Assembly (NCBI RefSeq): GCF_016586355.1
Contig: NZ_BLYI01000047.1
Span: 1 to 64,000, forward strand
Reading direction: 5' to 3'
Source: Anaerostipes butyraticus
GTDB taxonomy: Bacteria; Bacillota; Clostridia; Lachnospirales; Lachnospiraceae
DNA length: 64,000 bases
A program made the position numbers and the translations under genes. The notes below the pieces were generated by a model that was not told the DNA's origin, made no database searches, and worked only from the letters and a program-made list of their open reading frames with translations. Of the stretch, positions 11,895 to 20,993 are shown piece after piece (position 1 is the first letter of the stretch; each line of letters opens with the position of its first letter).

Positions 11895-12189
11895 TAATGT
11901 AAGCAGAAGAAAAAATTGCATATGGGGATGAACAGACTATGACTTCAGAAGAGAAAAATCTATACAATAGAAGATATTTACAAATTACCAGAAAGGTCAA
12001 AGAGCGGAATTGTTTGATGGCTGGATGTATATGATGGCGTTGCCGGGTAGAAAGTAGCAGCTTGTTTTTGAGTTGAATTATGCAATTAAAGAATATATTG
12101 AAACAGTAGAAGAATATACTTTTGAAAATATTGTACTGGCGGAGATTTATGAGAATTTCAGTGTTGATTTTAAAGAAATAGATTTATGA
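11895..12189 (+). pseudogene. Uma2-family (DUF820) endonuclease remnant
   Basis: Fragments in shifting frames read EEKIAYGDEQTMTSEEK, then YTIEDIYKLPER, then LFDGWMYMMALPGRK, then LVFELNYAIKEYIE, and finally IVLAEIYENFSVDFKEIDL before a stop. The order and wording match Uma2 proteins (PD-(D/E)XK fold), but frameshifts, in-frame stops and an internal deletion have removed the catalytic core. It lies between the trailer of array 1 and the candidate regulatory RNA. Confidence 0.55.
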
Positions 12190-12211
12190 AGGTTCAGAAT
12201 GGAAGTTTTAG

Positions 12212-12240
12212 TTGAAACATCTGAAAGAATATTATATATT
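12212..12240 (+). promoter_or_regulatory. Promoter of the candidate Cas-regulating RNA
   Basis: TTGAAA (12212-12217), a 17-bp spacer and TATATT (12235-12240) form a near-consensus sigma-A promoter. It would start a transcript near 12247, just before the first degenerate repeat at 12261. Confidence 0.65.
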
Positions 12241-12260
12241 AAAAAAGAAATAAAGCACAA

Positions 12261-12290
12261 ATAGAACAATAATATAAGATGTTTTTAAAT
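12261..12290 (+). repeat. Isolated degenerate CRISPR repeat (5' half of the CreR unit)
   Basis: It starts ATAGAACAAT and ends GATGTTTTTAAAT, aligned base for base with the 30-bp array repeat. The 3' end, which would supply the crRNA 5' handle TTTTAAAT, is intact. It is 440 bp beyond the last repeat of array 1. Confidence 0.85.
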
Positions 12291-12316
12291 ATGATAAGGG
12301 ATTGAATTTGTGTTTT

Positions 12317-12342
12317 AGTAAACCGTAACATACGATGTAAGG
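12317..12342 (+). repeat. Second, more decayed CRISPR repeat (3' half of the CreR unit)
   Basis: AGTAAACCGT followed by AACATACGATGT aligns with positions 1-22 of the array repeat. The TTTTTAAAT end is replaced by the stem of a terminator. Confidence 0.65.
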
Positions 12343-12365
12343 CACTAAGTAAAGTGCCTTTTTTT
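12339..12365 (+). terminator. Terminator of the candidate CreR
   Basis: AAGGCACT and AGTGCCTT form a perfect 8-bp stem with a 6-base loop, followed by a T-run. It ends the small RNA before the target site, so the RNA does not contain both copies of the 18-nt match. Confidence 0.85.
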
Positions 12366-12377
12366 GTGCACAATTAT

Positions 12378-12400
12378 AATTCAATCCCTTATCATTGACA
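12378..12400 (-). promoter_or_regulatory. Predicted CreR target (protospacer and PAM) in the cas promoter
   Basis: The minus strand reads TGTCA then ATGATAAGGGATTGAATT, identical to the first 18 nt of the pseudo-spacer. TCA (complement of 12396-12398) is in the PAM position. The PAM overlaps TTGACA (12395-12400), so Cascade bound here would cover the -35 box. Confidence 0.75.
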
Positions 12401-12423
12401 ATTGATATAGAGAGTGATAAACT
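12395..12423 (+). promoter_or_regulatory. Promoter of the cas operon
   Basis: A perfect -35 TTGACA (12395-12400), a 17-bp spacer and TAAACT (12418-12423) as a moderate -10. Transcription would start near 12430, giving a 5' leader of about 45 nt before the cas6 start. Confidence 0.65.
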
Positions 12424-12473
12424 ATAGGCATAAGGAAACACAAAACTTAAGTCGATGCGGAAAGGAGGAAAAT

Positions 12474-13169
12474 GTGTTTATTTTTGAATGCAGAATCCGG
12501 GTGCGGTTAAACTGCGATATTATGTACCCTAAAATTCCGGAAAAGATCACATATTTTATTGATTCTATATTAGCCAAAGACTATCTGGATTATCATGTCA
12601 GTAAAGAATATAAAAACTATGTTCATGATATGCTTTGGCCGATTGAGGGAGATGGCGTGTATAAGCAGGGAAAGATATATGCGTTTCGCATCCGGACAAT
12701 CAGTCAGGAGATGGCAGAATATTTTATGGAGCATCTGTCTTATCAGCAGACAAAAGAATTTACCGGGGTATCCACTGATATCAAGATTTTGCCCAAGAAG
12801 CTGTTGGAAAAGATTTATTCCATTACGCCGATTGTAATTAAGAATCCGGAATTTGGATACTGGAGAGGGCATATGACAGTTCCGGAGTTCGAAGAAAGAT
12901 TAAAAATCAATCTGATAAAGAAGTACCGGTTTTTTACTGGAAATGAACTGGGAGATGATTTTGAATTTTGTAATTTAATGGAGTTTAAGAATAAAAAACC
13001 AATCAAACTTCCATATAAAAACATCTGCCTGCTGGGAGATAAGATATGCTTTCATGTGGCGCCGAATCCAAAAGCACAAATGCTGGCACAGCTGGCTTTG
13101 GGAGTAGGAATTGGCGAAGGCGGTTCCCGAGGAAACGGCTTCATGAATTATCAGTATATGCAGAGATAA
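12474..13169 (+). CDS. cas6: CRISPR endoribonuclease Cas6 (type I-B)
   Basis: 231 residues. Cas6 cuts the pre-crRNA inside each repeat, leaving an 8-nt 5' handle. The C-terminus has the Gly-rich loop GVGIGEGGSRGNGFM, typical of Cas6 RAMP folds, and HVAPNPKAQMLAQLALG just before it. The start is taken as GTG 12474 because AAAGGAGG (12461-12468) lies 5 bases upstream; the frame upstream of it overlaps the promoter. It is the first gene of the cas operon, and cas8b starts within 16 bp. If CreR is real, Cas6 would also process it. Confidence 0.9.
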   Translation: MFIFECRIRVRLNCDIMYPKIPEKITYFIDSILAKDYLDYHVSKEYKNYVHDMLWPIEGDGVYKQGKIYAFRIRTISQEMAEYFMEHLSYQQTKEFTGVSTDIKILPKKLLEKIYSITPIVIKNPEFGYWRGHMTVPEFEERLKINLIKKYRFFTGNELGDDFEFCNLMEFKNKKPIKLPYKNICLLGDKICFHVAPNPKAQMLAQLALGVGIGEGGSRGNGFMNYQYMQR

Positions 13170-13184
13170 GGGGAGGTGAGAGTT

Positions 13185-14966
13185 GTGCTGAAAGAAGCTA
13201 TGGAAGTTTTTGGACGTTCATTGGAGAAAGAGTCGGGAAGACTGGTGCTGGATTCACACATCCCGAAACCCGGGACATATCGTCTCATAGAGATGGATGA
13301 GGATGAATGGAAGATCATAAAAACACTGGATCTTTATTTTGACAGGAAGAAACAGGAGATGGTTGGAAAAAATGATGCCTCCTACCTGCTGATTCGTGAA
13401 TTGGATTACAATAGTAAATTGATTGTCATGAATAAACCAGTCGATCCAAAAAAAGTAATACATTCGAACAATTATCTTTCTCTGGCGGTGAAAAAGAACA
13501 GCATTTCAGAAGGGAAATTGACCCGGGAGATTCTGGAGAAATACTATGAAATTCTGGAAAATCCTATTCAGAAATATGAGAAAAAGCGAAAAGCCAGAAG
13601 ACTGTATGAAGAGGTGGAGCAAAGAATCGGCCAGCCCGATTTGGAAACATTAAATAAGATAAAGCATTATGTTATGACACATGACATCTGGGAAGGAATT
13701 GATCTGGATTCAAAAGATTATGTCAAATTATTTTTTATTTTTCCTGATCCAAAGAAAACGAAACAGTATTATGAGACGGAAAATGAACGCTATCTGATTC
13801 CCAATATTTACAACAGCAATGATTTTAATGAAGAGGAAGAAGAAGGAATCAAGGGACTTCCTAATAATAATATGGGAATGAACAGCAAAAAGCCTTTTTT
13901 GGAAAATAAGACAAGGAAAGTCAAGGTTCCTTATTTATTGAATCAAGAGGATGTCTTGCTGCAGGCGAAATTTTTTGACTATTTGATGGGCCAGGTATCG
14001 CAGGGACGGACTAACATATATATCGATACGGATGAGGAAGAACCGGAAATTCGTTCTTATTCAGATACGGAAGAACCGGGAAGCATGCTGGGTGGATATT
14101 ATCTTAAGTGCAGAAAAGGAAAAAATGAAGCGGAGATTATTTCCGGAGCGGCGCTATGCGATTATAAATCCAAGTTGGATACGATGTTTAAGCTGAAAAA
14201 TTATATGAGAATTCCAGATGAAATCATCGAAAAATATCCGGTGTCAAAAGTTGAAAAGATAAATATAGGAACATTATGGGAGCTTAAGAGTGTTATAGAT
14301 GATATTTTCTTTGCAGGGAAACTGAAATATAACTTCTATACAGATGCGAAGGATATGAGTATCAATGAGCCGGTTTTGAAACGATGTATACTGGAAAATA
14401 GAGATACATTAGCATTATGGTTCTGGCAGGGAGAAAAAAATCGGATCGAAATGGTGTTTGACAAGTTTTCTTTGGAATTGATCAAAAATTCCATTCGAAG
14501 GGAGAGAATGCTGCTGGCAAATCATCAATTCAATTTGCGGTGGTCTCTGCTGGAATATTTAAATCCGGAAAGGAAGATAGGAGAAAGAATGAAAGATTGC
14601 AGACAGTTATTAAGGGAACATATTAATTCTGATGTAGATACTGAGTGGGAATTCTCATCGGATGCAGAATATTGTTATGCCATTGGACAGGCAGTCAGTT
14701 ATATGCTGTCGTTAAGTAAAATGAAAAATAAGACCGATGCGTTTATTAATCCATATTTAAATGCGAAAAGCGCGGATGTGATAAAAATGAGATTAGAGCA
14801 GTTATACAAAAAATACAATCATAGTATTACGCATACCAATAATGGGAGAGAGGAACAGCTGCTTTCACACTTAATGGTTTATGAACCAGAACAGATACTG
14901 ACAGAATATATTATGGCAGGTTTCACGGCGAGATCATTGATTTATGAAAAGAATGAAAAACAGTAA
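13185..14966 (+). CDS. cas8b: Cascade large subunit Cas8b (Csh1-like)
   Basis: About 593 residues, the usual size for Cas8b. It would recognise the PAM and help open target DNA within Cascade. No catalytic motif is expected; the assignment comes from position between cas6 and cas7, length and overall composition. The SD GGGGAGG (13170-13176) sits 8 bases before GTG 13185, which I prefer to the GTG at 13176 that overlaps the SD itself. The C-terminal helical region is likely the part equivalent to the small subunit, since no separate cas11 is present (an internal start could supply it). Confidence 0.85.
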   Translation: MLKEAMEVFGRSLEKESGRLVLDSHIPKPGTYRLIEMDEDEWKIIKTLDLYFDRKKQEMVGKNDASYLLIRELDYNSKLIVMNKPVDPKKVIHSNNYLSLAVKKNSISEGKLTREILEKYYEILENPIQKYEKKRKARRLYEEVEQRIGQPDLETLNKIKHYVMTHDIWEGIDLDSKDYVKLFFIFPDPKKTKQYYETENERYLIPNIYNSNDFNEEEEEGIKGLPNNNMGMNSKKPFLENKTRKVKVPYLLNQEDVLLQAKFFDYLMGQVSQGRTNIYIDTDEEEPEIRSYSDTEEPGSMLGGYYLKCRKGKNEAEIISGAALCDYKSKLDTMFKLKNYMRIPDEIIEKYPVSKVEKINIGTLWELKSVIDDIFFAGKLKYNFYTDAKDMSINEPVLKRCILENRDTLALWFWQGEKNRIEMVFDKFSLELIKNSIRRERMLLANHQFNLRWSLLEYLNPERKIGERMKDCRQLLREHINSDVDTEWEFSSDAEYCYAIGQAVSYMLSLSKMKNKTDAFINPYLNAKSADVIKMRLEQLYKKYNHSITHTNNGREEQLLSHLMVYEPEQILTEYIMAGFTARSLIYEKNEKQ

Positions 14967-14982
14967 TTAGGAGGGATTTGAG

Positions 14983-15930
14983 ATGATGAAAAAACGTGTA
15001 TATGGAATCTTAGGAATTTCGTCTATTATGGCAAATTGGAATGCAGGTTTTGATGGATATCCAAAAACGACGTCCAGCGGAGAGACATATGGAAGTGATA
15101 AAGCCTTGAAATATCCAATGAAAAAAATGTGGGAGGAACAGGGAGAGAAAGTTGTCTATATTAAATCTATGAGACTGGAACAGGGGAAAAAGGGAGAGAT
15201 TCGGCTGATTCCCCGGAGTTTAAAGGAACGTTATGAATTTTTGTTTCAGGTAGAAGATTTGAAACAATGTAAAGATACGCAGGAAGTACTGAAAAACTTA
15301 TTTCAGGCTGTGGACGTAAAGAATTTTGGAGCCACATTTGCAGAGTCCGGCAATAATATTTCAATCACAGGAGCGGTACAATTTGGCCAGGGATTCAATC
15401 TGTATGATGAAACATTTCCACAGGAACAGTCAATCCTGTCACCGTTTCGTGATGCAACGAAAGCAACGGAAAAAGACGGTGAGGCAAAAAATTCAACATT
15501 GGGTACCAAGATTGTAAGTGATGAAGCCCATTATTTTTATCCTTTTGTGATCAATCCTCTGGCATATAAGGAATTTATGGAAATGGGAGTTACGGAGGGA
15601 TATACGGAAGAAGATTATCTTAAGTTTAAAGAAGCAGCCTGCGTAGCAGCAACGGCATTTGCCACTAATGCAAAAGAGGGTTGTGAAAATGAATTTGCAT
15701 TATTTATAGAAACGGACCCGAAGTTATATCTTCCGAATTTGACGAGCTATCTTCGGTTTGAACGGCGGGAAGGAAAGAATCTCATTCGTTTAGACTTAAA
15801 TGATCTGGCAGAAGAATTGGGAGATCGAATTGATTCAATAGAAATTTATTATAACCCTGCAACAACAGAGATGGATCATAACCTGAAAGGAGCGGTATAT
15901 TACGACATTATCACACGAAAAGAGGTATGA
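14983..15930 (+). CDS. cas7: Cascade backbone protein Cas7 (Csh2-like)
   Basis: 315 residues. It forms the helical backbone that coats the crRNA spacer. The N-terminus (RVYGILGISSIMANWNAGFD) and the later SDEAHYFYPFVINPLAY block fit the Csh2/Cas7b family of subtype I-B. GGAGGG precedes ATG 14983, with a second ATG one codon on. The gene overlaps cas5 by 4 bp. Confidence 0.92.
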   Translation: MMKKRVYGILGISSIMANWNAGFDGYPKTTSSGETYGSDKALKYPMKKMWEEQGEKVVYIKSMRLEQGKKGEIRLIPRSLKERYEFLFQVEDLKQCKDTQEVLKNLFQAVDVKNFGATFAESGNNISITGAVQFGQGFNLYDETFPQEQSILSPFRDATKATEKDGEAKNSTLGTKIVSDEAHYFYPFVINPLAYKEFMEMGVTEGYTEEDYLKFKEAACVAATAFATNAKEGCENEFALFIETDPKLYLPNLTSYLRFERREGKNLIRLDLNDLAEELGDRIDSIEIYYNPATTEMDHNLKGAVYYDIITRKEV

Positions 15931-16634
15931 GCATGCGGGTATTAAAGTTTGATTTAAAAGGAAAAACAGCATTTTTTAAATCTCCGGAAGTGAATCTGTG
16001 CTATTTTACCTATGGAAATATCCATAAACCAGTGCTGCTTGGAATATTTGGAGCAATTATGGGGTATAAAGGATACAACAACGGATATGATGTGTATCCG
16101 GAATATTATGAGCGTCTGCAGCACTTGAAAGTTTCGATAATCCCAGGAGAAGAAAGAGGTGTGTTTGATAAAAAATTTCAAAATTTTAACAATTCAGTTG
16201 GATATGCTTCACAGGAGCAGGGAGGGAATCTGATTGTAAGGGAACAGTGGCTGGAGAATCCTAAATGGACTATTTATGTAAGCTTAAATAGTGATGAAAG
16301 CCTCAAATTGGCAGATATGATAAAAAACAGGGAATGTGTGTATATGCCGTATTTAGGAAAAAATGATCATCCTGCTGTAATAGAAAACGTGGAGATTCTT
16401 TCAATAGAGAAAACGGAAGCAGAAAATCAAAGAATTCATAGTCTGGCGCCGGCTGATGATCTGGAGTTCGACTGGGACGATGCATTATATCGCTATGAGG
16501 AGTATCTGCCGTCTGCTCTGACGGAAAGAACCAATCAGTATCAGATGAAAAAGTTTGTGCTTACAGATGCAGAAGTCATTGCTGCGAAGGTTCCGGTTTA
16601 TCAGGATGGAGGAAAAAATATTGTGTTTTATTGA
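15927..16634 (+). CDS. cas5: Cascade protein Cas5 (type I-B)
   Basis: About 235 residues. Cas5 caps the crRNA 5' handle in Cascade. The RAMP-type N-terminus VLKFDLKGKTAFFKSPEVN and the SGxxGAI-like GIFGAIMGYKGYN loop fit Cas5h/Cas5b. The ATG at 15927 overlaps the cas7 stop; ATG 15933 is better spaced from AAAGAGGT, so the true start may be 6 bases later. Its 3' end overlaps the cas3 start. Confidence 0.9.
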   Translation: MSMRVLKFDLKGKTAFFKSPEVNLCYFTYGNIHKPVLLGIFGAIMGYKGYNNGYDVYPEYYERLQHLKVSIIPGEERGVFDKKFQNFNNSVGYASQEQGGNLIVREQWLENPKWTIYVSLNSDESLKLADMIKNRECVYMPYLGKNDHPAVIENVEILSIEKTEAENQRIHSLAPADDLEFDWDDALYRYEEYLPSALTERTNQYQMKKFVLTDAEVIAAKVPVYQDGGKNIVFY

Positions 16635-19155
16635 ATTAAAGACAGTTTTGGCAAATGAGTATCCGATATATGCACATAAGAAGGATTCTAAGAAGGAATT
16701 ATTAGAAGAACATATAGAAAGATGTGAATATTATTTTAGGAAAATATATGATCAGAAAAAACTGGGTGCTGTGGTCCATCGATTCGGCAGGATGCTCAAC
16801 TTTCATGATAGCGAATTTATTGATACATTCCTGCAGGATTTGCTGTTTCAAATGATTGTGTTTCATGATCTGGGAAAATGCAATCCTTTGTTTCAAAAGC
16901 GGAAGATGCAGAATCCGGATATACCGGATGATTGTGAGACAGCCTGCGGGACGGAACATTCGCTGCTTTCATCGATTCTGTATATTGATTATTTCTGGGA
17001 TAAAATAGAGGAATATTCCCTTGAAAAGAGGGAGAAGAAACAATTAAAGATCCTGGCAGCAGAACATGCTTTTATCATTTCAAGGCATCATGGGAATTTA
17101 AATGAATTCGAGACATATATAAAGAAGCTGAAAGGCCTGGAAGCAAAAGAAATTATTTTGGCATTACAACAGAATCGTATTCCGGGATTCAAAGGACTGA
17201 GATGTCTGGAAGATCATACGATAGAAAAAGTATTAAATGACAGGATTTATAAAGGAAGAAATAAACTGTCGAGAGAGCAGGAATGCGCAAAATATTTTTA
17301 TTATCGTATGGTGTATTCTCTGTTAGTCGCATGTGATTACTATGCGACAACAGAGTTTACAAAAGATATGAAACTGCAGGATATAGGAAAGGGGTGTTCG
17401 ATCGATAAATTTCAATCAGCTTATGAAAAATCTGAAATTTTAAAATCCATTCGAAAATATGAAAGAGAACAATATTCTTCTGCAAAAGACGATAGCTTTC
17501 AGATGAAAAAAATGAATGATTTGCGAAGTGAAATATTCCTGGATGTTGAAAATGTTTTAAAAGATCATCAGGATCAGTCGGTTTTCTTCCTGGAGGCACC
17601 GACAGGGAGCGGGAAAACCAATATTTCTATTAATGCCAGTTTTCAGCTGATGAAAGGCGAGAATAAATTAATGTATATATATCCGTTTAATACACTGGTG
17701 GAGCAGACAAAACAAACTTTGCAAAAGCTTTTCCCGGATAAAGATTTGCAGAAACAGATTGTAGTCGTGAATTCTTTGACTCCGATTGCAGAGGAACAGG
17801 AAAATACAGATGACTCTGAAAAATATTATCAAAAATCTTTGCTGGATCGTCAGTTTTTGGATTATCCATTTATTCTGTCGACACACGTCAGTTTTTTTAA
17901 CTTACTATTCGGCAGCAGGAAAGAAGATATATTTGGATTTTTTCAGCTGTCACAGGCGATTATCGTTTTGGATGAGATTCAAAGTTATAGGAATGAAATA
18001 TGGACAGAGATTATGATAATGCTGAAAGCCTGCGCTGAATTGATGAATATGAAAATTATCATTATGTCAGCAACGCTGCCGAGATTGGAACAGCTGGGCG
18101 GGGATGATACGGGTGTAACGTATCTTTTAAAGGACAGCCGGATTTATTTTCAGCATCCGGTTTTTCAAAAGCGTGTATCTGAAATTTCATTTGAACTATT
18201 GAAAGAAAACTTAGCGATGGAGACATTGTTGGAACATGTTATAAAAACAGCAAAAGGGAATCCAAAATCAAAAATTTTGATTGAATTTATCACAAAAAAA
18301 TCAGCCTATAAATTTTATAATCTTTTGTCTGAGCACAAGGAATTAAAAGTGCCAGTTCAGTGTATTACAGGAGATGATTCTTTGTATGAACGGGAAAAAA
18401 TATTGAGGCCAATAAAAGAAAAGTCAATACAGGGTATGCTTCTGGTGGCGACTCAGGTGATTGAGGCAGGAGTTGATATTGATATGGATATTGGATACAA
18501 AAATATTTCCAAACTTGACAGTGAAGAACAGTTCCTGGGCCGCATTAACAGGTCATACAAGAAAGAAGGGAAAGTATATTTCTTTCATTTGGACGAGGCA
18601 AAGAGAATTTATCGAAATGACTGTCGTATGACAGAAGAACTTACTTTGAAGCATTCAGAAATGCAGAAGGTTCTGATGGATAAAAACTTTTCTGAGTATT
18701 ATGAAAAAGTATTTGAGATTCTTAAATCCAACAGAAACGAGAGCACAGACAGAGAAGGATTGAACTACTTTTTTGATAAGGATGTGCAGCGGTTAAATTA
18801 TCCGGAAGTCAGCAAACGTATGGCGCTGATCGAAGATGATCAGTGGAGTATGAGTATTGTTGTGTGCAGAAAATTAATGTTTGATGATGGCACATACCTG
18901 GATGGAGAAGAAGTATGGGAACGATATAAAAGTTTGCTGATGAATTCTAATATGGCATACGCAGAGAAGCAGGTGAAATTATCAATTGCAAGAAGTCAGT
19001 TAAGCTATTTTACATATCAAATAAAACGTAATTATAATCTGGCATGTGATGATAACATCGGAGAGTTGTTTTGTATTAAGGACGGAGAAAGATTTTTTGA
19101 AAATGGGAAAATAGATCTTGAAGAATTGGAGAAGCATAATAGTTTGTTTTTATAA
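16621..19155 (+). CDS. cas3: CRISPR nuclease-helicase Cas3 (HD plus SF2 helicase)
   Basis: About 844 residues. The N-terminal HD nuclease has FHDLGK near residue 81, then EHSLLSS and ISRHHG. The helicase has Walker A APTGSGKT near 326, the DEIQ box near 450, MSATLPR, and motif VI QFLGRINRS near 637. Cascade recruits it to unwind and degrade target DNA. The start is TTG 16621: GGATGGAGG lies 8 bases upstream. ATG 16606 is in frame but has no spaced ribosome site. The gene overlaps cas5 by 14 bp. Confidence 0.95.
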   Translation: MCFIELKTVLANEYPIYAHKKDSKKELLEEHIERCEYYFRKIYDQKKLGAVVHRFGRMLNFHDSEFIDTFLQDLLFQMIVFHDLGKCNPLFQKRKMQNPDIPDDCETACGTEHSLLSSILYIDYFWDKIEEYSLEKREKKQLKILAAEHAFIISRHHGNLNEFETYIKKLKGLEAKEIILALQQNRIPGFKGLRCLEDHTIEKVLNDRIYKGRNKLSREQECAKYFYYRMVYSLLVACDYYATTEFTKDMKLQDIGKGCSIDKFQSAYEKSEILKSIRKYEREQYSSAKDDSFQMKKMNDLRSEIFLDVENVLKDHQDQSVFFLEAPTGSGKTNISINASFQLMKGENKLMYIYPFNTLVEQTKQTLQKLFPDKDLQKQIVVVNSLTPIAEEQENTDDSEKYYQKSLLDRQFLDYPFILSTHVSFFNLLFGSRKEDIFGFFQLSQAIIVLDEIQSYRNEIWTEIMIMLKACAELMNMKIIIMSATLPRLEQLGGDDTGVTYLLKDSRIYFQHPVFQKRVSEISFELLKENLAMETLLEHVIKTAKGNPKSKILIEFITKKSAYKFYNLLSEHKELKVPVQCITGDDSLYEREKILRPIKEKSIQGMLLVATQVIEAGVDIDMDIGYKNISKLDSEEQFLGRINRSYKKEGKVYFFHLDEAKRIYRNDCRMTEELTLKHSEMQKVLMDKNFSEYYEKVFEILKSNRNESTDREGLNYFFDKDVQRLNYPEVSKRMALIEDDQWSMSIVVCRKLMFDDGTYLDGEEVWERYKSLLMNSNMAYAEKQVKLSIARSQLSYFTYQIKRNYNLACDDNIGELFCIKDGERFFENGKIDLEELEKHNSLFL

Positions 19156-19175
19156 TAGTAAGAGGACTGGCTGTC

Positions 19176-19688
19176 ATGGGAAGGGAGCGGTATCTGATGG
19201 AAATTAATGGTACATTAGTGAACTACTATTTTCATTGTAAAAGACAATGCTATTTACACGGAAATCGGATTAATTTAGAAGATAACAGTGAAATTGTAAA
19301 AGTAGGAAAAGCACTGCATGAGAGAAATTTACAAAGAGATAGTGATGAGATAGCGATAGAAAATATAAAGCTGGATAAACTAACAAAAAATTTTTTAGTA
19401 GAAATAAAAAAATCGGATGCAGATGCAGAGGCGGCATCATGGCAGCTTTTATATTACTTAAAAATTTTAAAAGAAAAAGGGATTAAAAGAAAAGGGAAAT
19501 TAGAGTTTATAGAAAAAAATAAGTCGAAGAAAAAAACAATAATTGTAGATTTAACAGCAGACAAGGAAAAGGAGCTGCAGAGATATGTCGAAGAAATAAA
19601 AATGTTGCTTGATTCAGAGGAGATACCAGAGCGATTAAATAAAACCAGCTGTCGAAAATGTTCATATTATGAATATTGTTATATTTGA
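19176..19688 (+). CDS. cas4: CRISPR adaptation nuclease Cas4
   Basis: 170 residues, RecB-like nuclease with an iron-sulfur cluster. An N-terminal Cys pair (CKRQC) and the C-terminal CRKCSYYEYC supply the cluster ligands. KVGKALHERN and a central AEAASWQLLYYLK helix fit the Cas4 family. It trims PAM-containing prespacers for Cas1-Cas2. AAGAGGA lies 9 bases before ATG 19176. It is 20 bp after cas3 and 15 bp before cas1. Confidence 0.92.
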   Translation: MGRERYLMEINGTLVNYYFHCKRQCYLHGNRINLEDNSEIVKVGKALHERNLQRDSDEIAIENIKLDKLTKNFLVEIKKSDADAEAASWQLLYYLKILKEKGIKRKGKLEFIEKNKSKKKTIIVDLTADKEKELQRYVEEIKMLLDSEEIPERLNKTSCRKCSYYEYCYI

Positions 19689-19703
19689 TGGAGGCGGTAT
19701 AAG

Positions 19704-20702
19704 ATGGGAAGTACACGTTACATAACCACAATGGGAGAATTAACCAGAAAAGATAATTCATTATGCTTTCGTAAAAATGGAAGAAATGTTTATATTCCAA
19801 TTGAGAATACTAAAGAAATATTTTGTCTGAATGAAATTACTATTAATTCTAAACTCTTGGACTTTTTAAGTAAAAATCATGTGGTTGTACACTTTTTTAA
19901 TTATTATGGAAACTATAGTGGGACTTATTATCCCAGGGATCAATATTTGAGTGGCAGGCTGTTGATAAAACAGGTTGATAAGTTCCAAAATCAAAGATTA
20001 CCAATTGCAAAAGCTATTGTAAAGGGAATAGGAGAAAATATAAAAGAAGTGTTGTATCATTATTATAAGCATGATAAAAAAGAAGTAAAAATAACAATAG
20101 ACTGGATTACGAAGGTATTTTATCGGAATGTGGAAAAGGCAGAATCCATTGAAGAACTTATGAGTTATGAAGGCGAGTTGTGGGCAAAGTTTTATGCATC
20201 ATTTCAATATTTTTTACCGGAAGATTTTATTATGTCCAAAAGAGTAAAAAGACCTCCAGATAATCCGATTAATGCGCTGATTTCATTTGGCAATACCTTG
20301 TTATATGCCAAAACTATTTCTGCAATTTATAGAACACATCTGGATCAAAGAATCAGTTATTTGCATCAGCCAGCTGAGAGAAGATTTTCTTTAAGTTTAG
20401 ATATGAGTGAGGTGTTTAAGCCAGTGATAGTATTTCGAACTATTTTTGAATTAGTGAATAATAGAAAGATAAAAGTTGAAAATCATTTCAATAAGGAATT
20501 GAATTATTGTATTTTGAATGATGAAGGCAGAAGGATATTTATAGAAGCTTTTGAGGAGAGAATGGAATCAACGTTTGTTCATCCTAAATTACGCAGGAAG
20601 GTATCATACCGGACAGCTATAAAATTAGATTGTTATAAATTAATTAAAAATATTTTGGAGAATAAAGAATTTAAGCCTTTTTCATTAAAGGAGAAAATAT
20701 AA
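19704..20702 (+). CDS. cas1: CRISPR integrase Cas1
   Basis: 332 residues. Metal ligands are visible as the Glu in SYEGELWAKFY, the His in ISYLHQPAERR and the Asp in SLSLDMSEVFKP. It inserts new spacers at the leader end together with Cas2. GGAGGCGG precedes the ATG. The stop codon directly abuts the cas2 ATG. Confidence 0.96.
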   Translation: MGSTRYITTMGELTRKDNSLCFRKNGRNVYIPIENTKEIFCLNEITINSKLLDFLSKNHVVVHFFNYYGNYSGTYYPRDQYLSGRLLIKQVDKFQNQRLPIAKAIVKGIGENIKEVLYHYYKHDKKEVKITIDWITKVFYRNVEKAESIEELMSYEGELWAKFYASFQYFLPEDFIMSKRVKRPPDNPINALISFGNTLLYAKTISAIYRTHLDQRISYLHQPAERRFSLSLDMSEVFKPVIVFRTIFELVNNRKIKVENHFNKELNYCILNDEGRRIFIEAFEERMESTFVHPKLRRKVSYRTAIKLDCYKLIKNILENKEFKPFSLKEKI

Positions 20703-20993
20703 ATGAGAAGACAAAAAAATTATAATTACGCATTCTTATTTTATGATGTTGGAGAAAAGCGTGTGCAGAAAGTGTTTAAAGTATGTAAAAAGTATTTGTC
20801 TCATTTTCAATATTCAGTATTTCGAGGAGAATTGACGCCATCTAACTTGATCAAGCTAAAAGAAGAATTAAAAAAAGTCATAGTAGAAGAGGAGGATTTT
20901 ATATGTATTATTAAATTAGTAAATGACAATGTATTCGGTGAGGAGATATTAGGGAATCCATCAGGTAATACAGGTGAAGACTTAATAATATAA
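20703..20993 (+). CDS. cas2: CRISPR adaptation protein Cas2
   Basis: 96 residues with the ferredoxin-like pattern YAFLFYDVGEKRVQKVFKVC at the start and YLSHFQYSVFRGEL after it, as in Cas2. It is the structural partner of Cas1. The ribosome site AAAGGAG lies at the end of cas1, and the ATG follows the cas1 stop without a gap. The leader of array 2 begins within a few bases. Confidence 0.95.
   Translation: MRRQKNYNYAFLFYDVGEKRVQKVFKVCKKYLSHFQYSVFRGELTPSNLIKLKEELKKVIVEEEDFICIIKLVNDNVFGEEILGNPSGNTGEDLII

What the first reader, a model, noticed from the sequence alone, without database searches (positions are those of the whole stretch)
12212..12474. Candidate CreR: a crRNA-like RNA that would repress its own type I-B cas operon
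Seen: a promoter (TTGAAA, 17 bp, TATATT), a degenerate repeat, a 26-nt pseudo-spacer, a second degenerate repeat and a terminator stand alone between array 1 and cas6. The first 18 nt of the pseudo-spacer (ATGATAAGGGATTGAATT) match, in inverted orientation, the bases next to the cas -35 box TTGACA. The PAM-side triplet is TCA and overlaps the -35 box. Known: CreR RNAs in some CRISPR systems use partial matches to repress cas promoters, and related clostridial I-B systems accept TCA. Alternative: a plain inverted repeat. However, a terminator separates the two copies and the second copy is upstream of the predicted cas start, so they would not share one transcript.
Basis: partly seen in the sequence, partly recalled or inferred. 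Interest (0 to 1): 0.93.

Follow-up and report, generated by a model that had tools for sequence, protein, structure and literature searches.

The report
crRNA-like repressor of its cas operon
A gut bacterium's CRISPR locus carries a tiny stand-alone CRISPR unit whose guide RNA matches the start switch of its own cas genes, most likely to keep the immune system turned down; the principle is already known, and similar units with ever-different sequences turned up in about a quarter of the related CRISPR loci examined.

Summary
A lone two-repeat mini-CRISPR (12261-12346) with its own promoter-like site and terminator sits upstream of a type I-B cas operon. The first 18 nt of its 26-nt pseudo-spacer recur exactly, inverted, beside the cas -35 box, with TCA on the PAM side. 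In 20,000 shuffles of the downstream region the longest PAM-end run was 12. The 18-mer occurs only twice in the genome.

A PAM-blind scan of 81 cas6-upstream regions found a repeat-like element whose guide recurs nearby in 21 loci, this one included; all 21 have PAM TCA. A 22nd hit was an array artefact. Shuffled regions gave 0.26 hits per survey, none with TCA. In two sister pairs guide and target change together at paired positions.

Best explanation: a CreR (cas-regulating RNA), a published kind for types I-B, I-E and V-A. Transcription, Cas6 processing and repression are inferred, not shown. Unusual: its target lies on the opposite strand to that of 19 of the other 20 loci, and its nearest kin showed no such element. 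New member of a known kind.

The parts
12212..12240 (+). promoter-like site of the mini-CRISPR (TTGAAA-17-TATATT)
   Evidence: 10 of 12 consensus bases; consensus match only
12261..12290 (+). psiR1, first degenerate repeat with intact 8-nt 5' handle TTTTAAAT
   Evidence: 25/27/26 of 30 to arrays 1/2/3, last 8 nt 8/8
12291..12316 (+). psiS, 26-nt pseudo-spacer (guide); the 68 immune spacers of the window are 33-38 nt
12317..12346 (+). psiR2, second degenerate repeat, last 8 nt lost
   Evidence: 16-17 of first 22, 2 of last 8
12339..12366 (+). intrinsic terminator, overlapping the end of psiR2
   Evidence: stem 12339-12360, then T run
12378..12395 (-). target: exact copy of guide nt 1-18 (protospacer)
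   Evidence: I3, 18 nt, 100%
12396..12398 (-). PAM TCA (5' of the protospacer on the minus strand)
   Evidence: TCA in 21 of 21 loci
12395..12423 (+). cas operon promoter-like site TTGACA-17-TAAACT
   Evidence: 10 of 12, with TG before the -10
12474..13169 (+). cas6, first gene of the repressed operon (GTG start)
   Evidence: TIGR01877; Cas6b 272.6 bits
13176..20993 (+). cas8b, cas7b, cas5b, cas3b, cas4b, cas1b, cas2b
   Evidence: Cas8b 584 bits
10215..11820 (+). CRISPR array 1 (36-bp-class spacers), upstream

Best explanation
It is a CreR gene. A promoter at 12212-12240 makes a short RNA that ends at 12366 (inferred). Cas6 cuts in psiR1 and psiR2, leaving a crRNA-like RNA with an intact 8-nt 5' handle and a 26-nt guide (inferred from anatomy). 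This RNA loads Cascade (Cas8b-Cas7-Cas5-Cas6). The complex reads TCA and pairs with 18 bp next to and overlapping the cas -35 box (sequence shown, binding inferred), blocking RNA polymerase. The match is too short for Cas3 attack, so the operon is repressed and not cut (inferred from the published 24-26 nt switch in other I-B systems). When immune crRNAs or anti-CRISPRs withdraw Cascade, cas transcription would rise (known for CreR, inferred here).
For: Anatomy and exact 18-nt match with TCA. Unique exact site in the genome. 21 of 81 cas6-upstream regions of related I-B loci hold a repeat-like element plus a guide that recurs nearby, PAM TCA in 21 of 21, found without asking for a PAM and again when the best of all sites was picked by total matches alone. 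Controls: 2 hits in 1,680 cross-locus pairs, neither TCA; 0.26 hits per shuffled survey over 50 surveys, none TCA. Coupled guide/target changes in sister pairs L092/L097 (positions 3, 9) and L077/L088 (7, 9), with drift at 6 and 12. One immune spacer of the window (21840) matches a viral contig 31/34 with TCA. TCA is a working PAM in C. pasteurianum I-B (TTTCA; PMC4860712, passages). Guides of 26 nt or less repress without cleaving in P. thermoglucosidasius I-B, 24 nt in H. hispanica (PMC10551041, passages). psiR1 keeps, psiR2 loses, the Cas5-binding last 8 nt, as in haloarchaeal CreA (PMC9458426 section 13). Targets touch a promoter-like site in 17 of 21 loci against 9.4 expected for random places.
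Against: No RNA or reporter data. No close relative of this very locus is held: the nearest Cas8b is 55% identical and the five nearest rows show no such element, so co-variation is shown for the family, not for this guide. The window's target strand is opposite to 19 of the other 20. In 4 of 21 loci no promoter-like site was found at the target, and in L045 and L105 the target lies before another small ORF, not before cas6. Two other viral matches to the first 20 nt of a spacer (L130, L131; 24/37 and 23/37) had TGC and TAC, not TCA; they look like related coding sequence, not true protospacers. The mismatch pattern at 6/12/18 (31 of 41 mismatches) is partly built in, since the scan tolerated those positions.
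Confidence: 0.88

Rival explanations
1. A plain inverted repeat: the two 18-nt arms have nothing to do with CRISPR, for instance a cruciform, operator or RNA stem.
For: The arms are perfectly complementary, 69 nt apart.
Against: One arm begins exactly at the 3' end of a degenerate repeat and the other exactly after TCA. A terminator lies between them. In 20 relatives the same guide-target-TCA relation holds, in 19 with the target on the cas-sense strand and in both guide orientations, so stem formation is not the common feature.
Confidence: 0.04
2. CreA of a CreTA addiction pair: the guide represses a toxin, not cas.
For: Same anatomy as creA. Some relatives have guides aimed at another small ORF (L045, L105).
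Against: The targeted promoter is followed by about 50 nt and then cas6; the only ORFs that start there are of 2, 10 and 12 codons besides the cas6 frame. A minimal toxin as short as six codons is known (PMC8501985 abstract), so a 10-codon ORF at 12455 cannot be ruled out by length alone.
Confidence: 0.04
3. Decayed end of array 1, or an accidental self-targeting spacer, without function.
For: Repeats are degenerate and array 1 ends 440 bp upstream. The nearest relatives lack the element.
Against: An accidental spacer would be 33-38 nt and match along its length; this one is 26 nt and matches from the PAM end only. Decay would not keep the 8-nt handle 8/8 while the rest drifts, nor give TCA in 21 of 21 loci.
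Confidence: 0.03
4. The guide acts mainly on the minus-strand promoter-like site TTGTCA-17-TATAAT (12401-12373), which would make a transcript antisense to creR; cas repression is secondary.
For: 11 of 12 consensus bases, and its 17-nt spacer is exactly guide nt 1-17.
Against: Consensus sites arise by chance here (5 found, 2.2 expected at 9 of 12 or better). The cas promoter shares the site. No gene lies downstream on the minus strand up to array 1 among ORFs of 80 aa or more.
Confidence: 0.05

Closest known systems
CreR, cas-regulating RNA (Liu et al. 2023, Cell Host Microbe 31:1481; paper not held; known here through PMC12737573 section 9, and passages of PMC12948488 and PMC13131331)
   Same: Lone mini-CRISPR beside the cas operon, crRNA-like guide with partial complementarity to the cas promoter, no toxin gene apparent; types I-B, I-E and V-A are covered by the published kind.
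   Different: Host is an Anaerostipes-group gut bacterium; whether the 2023 paper includes clostridial loci could not be checked. 18 contiguous matched nt with no break at positions 6, 12 or 18; target on the opposite strand to most relatives found here.
CreA of CreTA (haloarchaeal I-B)
   Same: Two degenerate repeats, handle kept in psiR1 and lost in psiR2, PAM beside a promoter target, seed pairing.
   Different: Haloarchaeal CreA pairs at nt 1-5 and 7-11 with PAM TTC and represses a toxin; here 18 nt, TCA, and cas6 follows. In haloarchaea psiR1 is the more diverged repeat; here psiR2 is.
Truncated-guide repression by type I-B Cascade (P. thermoglucosidasius, PMC10551041)
   Same: Guides of 26 nt or less repress without cutting.
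   Different: Engineered guides with full matches; PAM TTA.

Membership tests
CreR | crRNA-like gene: spacer-like sequence with repeat-like flank(s), outside the array, at the cas locus | tested here: met
CreR | 5' handle of the repeat conserved in psiR1 | tested here: met
   8 of 8 nt
CreR | partial complementarity, from the PAM end, to the cas promoter | tested here: met
   18 of 26 contiguous nt, overlapping the -35
CreR | PAM recognised by the cognate effector beside the target | tested here: met
   TCA in 21 of 21 loci; one immune protospacer of this locus with TCA; only 1 good protospacer from 8 spacers scanned
CreR | guide and target co-vary | tested here: met
   family level; not testable for this exact guide for want of close kin
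CreR | small RNA made and processed by Cas6 | not testable with these tools
   promoter-like and terminator signals only
CreR | effector-dependent repression of cas, relieved by crRNAs or anti-CRISPRs | not testable with these tools
   needs a reporter
CreTA | toxin gene behind the targeted promoter | tested here: inconclusive
   cas6 follows; only 2-, 10- and 12-codon ORFs start in the leader; a six-codon toxin is known elsewhere

The most novel reading that the evidence does not exclude
In clostridial type I-B loci CreR genes are not inherited but repeatedly re-made from the local array: they come and go (18 changes, at least 13 forced, on a Cas8b tree of 81 loci), guides are unrelated outside sister species, guide gene and target switch strands, and complementarity is held below the 24-26 nt at which I-B Cascade begins to call Cas3. 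The window would be one such separate origin, with the guide aimed at the opposite strand of its promoter.
Probability: 0.35. Interest if true: 0.65.

Novelty: new member of a known kind. Interest (0 to 1): 0.5.

Why it matters
If true, this locus sets its own Cascade level by RNA-guided feedback, so crRNA load and anti-CRISPRs would tune cas expression in a gut commensal. The 21 aligned cases give a ready test set: PAM, seed and permitted guide length can be read from nature, and the match-length ceiling (runs of 14-23 nt) can be tested against the published repression/cleavage switch. They also show that lone degenerate repeats near cas genes should be annotated as regulators, not as array debris.

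Tried and rejected
Immune PAM: array 1 against phages at E 0.01, no match; array 2 matched 187 phage records at E up to 5, the best listed ones through a repetitive tail-fibre stretch (only H5's annotation was opened); array 3 gave weak matches only; plasmids gave mainly the repeat itself or weak matches. Eight spacers were scanned in viral contigs: 2 of 8 had a match, 1 a good protospacer.

Hairpin around psiR1: the predicted RNA pairs its leader with the tail of psiS over 12 bp. The same kind of stem beats shuffles at 0.05 or better in only 4 of 21 loci (WIN, L035, L105, L071), so it is not a shared feature.

Phylogenetic clustering of the element: none (185 of 500 shuffles as low). Weak cases: among the 60 regions without a strong hit, 10 matches at 9 of 10 seed positions or better, 2 with TCA (L076, L091); not counted.

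Rows dropped before counting: 106 fetched loci plus the window; L025, L029, L030 had no Cas7 match; 15 duplicates removed, 89 left; 6 without cas6 upstream; L049 and L064 had under 100 nt before cas6; 81 scanned. One search returned only the best 80 of 221 relatives. L127 (GTA) was set aside as a register shift inside an array.

Full report
Observation. The window (G000:C47:1-64000, a 3.17-Mb genome of the same genus as Anaerostipes hominis by the tool's kinship table) holds a type I-B operon cas6-cas8b-cas7-cas5-cas3-cas4-cas1-cas2 at 12474-20993 and three CRISPR arrays. The first 18 nt of psiS are repeated inverted at 12378-12395 with TCA on the PAM side inside the cas -35. In 20,000 shuffles of the downstream region the longest PAM-end run was 12. 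The exact 18-mer has no third copy in the genome; in the window one other place (48587, plus strand) matches all ten seed positions, but with GTC in the PAM position.

Anatomy. psiR1 keeps the last 8 nt of the repeat, which form the 5' handle bound by Cas5, while psiR2 keeps the first part and loses the last 8. This is the rule described for haloarchaeal CreA repeats (PMC9458426, section 13 read), although there psiR1 is the more diverged repeat overall and here psiR2 is. The pseudo-spacer is 26 nt, outside the 33-38 nt range of the 68 immune spacers of the window.

Comparative test. After removing duplicates and loci without enough sequence before cas6, 81 regions of up to 830 nt were scanned (63,747 nt). 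Every repeat-like 30-mer on either strand was taken as a possible psiR1 (168 candidates), and the sequence after it was sought elsewhere in the region, asking for identity at guide positions 1-5 and 7-11 and at least 13 matches, with no demand on the PAM. 22 regions gave a hit. One (L127, GTA) is a register shift inside an array. The other 21 (WIN, L035, L045, L052, L054, L055, L056, L061, L063, L069, L071, L077, L081, L084, L088, L092, L097, L105, L112, L113, L126) all have TCA. When for these 21 the best site was chosen by total matches over 18 nt alone, it had TCA in 21 of 21; in L045 the runner-up was close (15 against 16) and in L077 it tied. Guides tried against other loci gave 2 hits in 1,680 pairs, neither with TCA. 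Dinucleotide shuffles gave 0.26 hits per survey over 50 surveys, none with TCA.

Co-variation. In the sister pair L092/L097 guide and target differ together at positions 3 and 9, and in L077/L088 at 7 and 9; at 6 and 12, positions that do not pair in Cascade (PMC8501985, section 15 read), guide and target drift apart. In the 21 cases 31 of 41 mismatches within the first 18 nt fall at 6, 12 or 18, but the scan tolerated those positions, so this is weaker evidence.

Geometry. The target overlaps or abuts a promoter-like site in 17 of 21 loci, against 9.4 for random places. In 11 of 21 the -35 starts 22-33 nt downstream of guide position 1, and 5 of these promoters match the consensus 12 of 12. 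The window differs: its target is on the minus strand and the PAM, not the far end, covers the -35. Only L045 shares the minus strand, and its target lies before a 36-codon ORF and not before cas6.

Why repression and not cutting. In P. thermoglucosidasius I-B, guides with 26 nt or less of complementarity repress and no longer cleave; the switch in H. hispanica is 24 nt (PMC10551041, passages). The window has 18 contiguous matches and 21 of 26 in all. Across the 21 loci the runs, allowing breaks at every sixth position, are 14-23 nt within the 24 nt measured, although some loci have further scattered matches (for example 24 of 27 in L097).

PAM. TCA is one of the PAMs shown to work in C. pasteurianum I-B (as TTTCA) and was predicted for C. 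tetani and C. thermocellum (PMC4860712, passages). For this locus, spacer 21840 matches a viral contig 31/34 with TCA. Two contigs that share the first 20 nt of spacer 25354 have TGC and TAC but match only 24/37 and 23/37.

Distribution. On a Cas8b tree of 81 loci the 21 carriers need 18 changes, at least 13 forced by well-supported branches, and are not clustered (185 of 500 shuffles as low). The window's five nearest rows show no such element by this scan. Gain and loss appear frequent.

Comparison with the known. CreR RNAs mediate autorepression in types I-B, I-E and V-A through partial promoter complementarity (PMC13131331 passages; PMC12737573 section 9). The founding paper is not held. 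In the searches made no held paper on clostridial CreR was seen in the listings, but that says little because the founding paper could not be read. I therefore file it as a new member of a known kind, with repression itself untested.

Verdict. Interest is moderate: the kind is known; the recurrent, PAM-invariant turnover and the opposite-strand target are the new points.

Noticed in passing
window 12373-12401, minus strand: Promoter-like TTGTCA-17-TATAAT (11 of 12) whose 17-nt spacer is exactly guide nt 1-17; would read antisense through creR.
   Followed up: no
window 12247-12317: Predicted creR RNA pairs its leader with the psiS tail over 12 bp, enclosing psiR1; rare among relatives.
   Followed up: partly
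window 11905-12215: Decayed ORF between array 1 and creR with several stops; it reminded me of Uma2-type nucleases (recalled; Pfam gave no support for its pieces).
   Followed up: partly
L105 (Clostridium tetanomorphum), about -366 before cas6: The guide targets the start of a 67-aa HTH_11 protein gene (27.2 bits, cut-off 25) lying between guide gene and cas6: RNA control of a possible regulator.
   Followed up: partly
L045 (Clostridium tertium), about -318 before cas6: The guide targets sequence before a 36-codon basic ORF between array and guide gene; possible CreTA-like pair.
   Followed up: partly
L126, -255 to -150 before cas6: The guide gene sits downstream of its own target promoter, so cas promoter and guide would form one self-limiting unit.
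   Followed up: no
L135 803-902 (Clostridioides sp. plasmid NZ_CP067354.1): A lone two-repeat mini-CRISPR on a plasmid with no cas gene in the listed annotation; repeat nearly that of this window's arrays. No target with TCA and full seed was found on the plasmid pieces or in the 81 cas-upstream regions.
   Followed up: partly
window 22035 and 25160: Arrays 2 and 3 share a spacer (35-36 nt), pointing to exchange or repeated acquisition between arrays.
   Followed up: no
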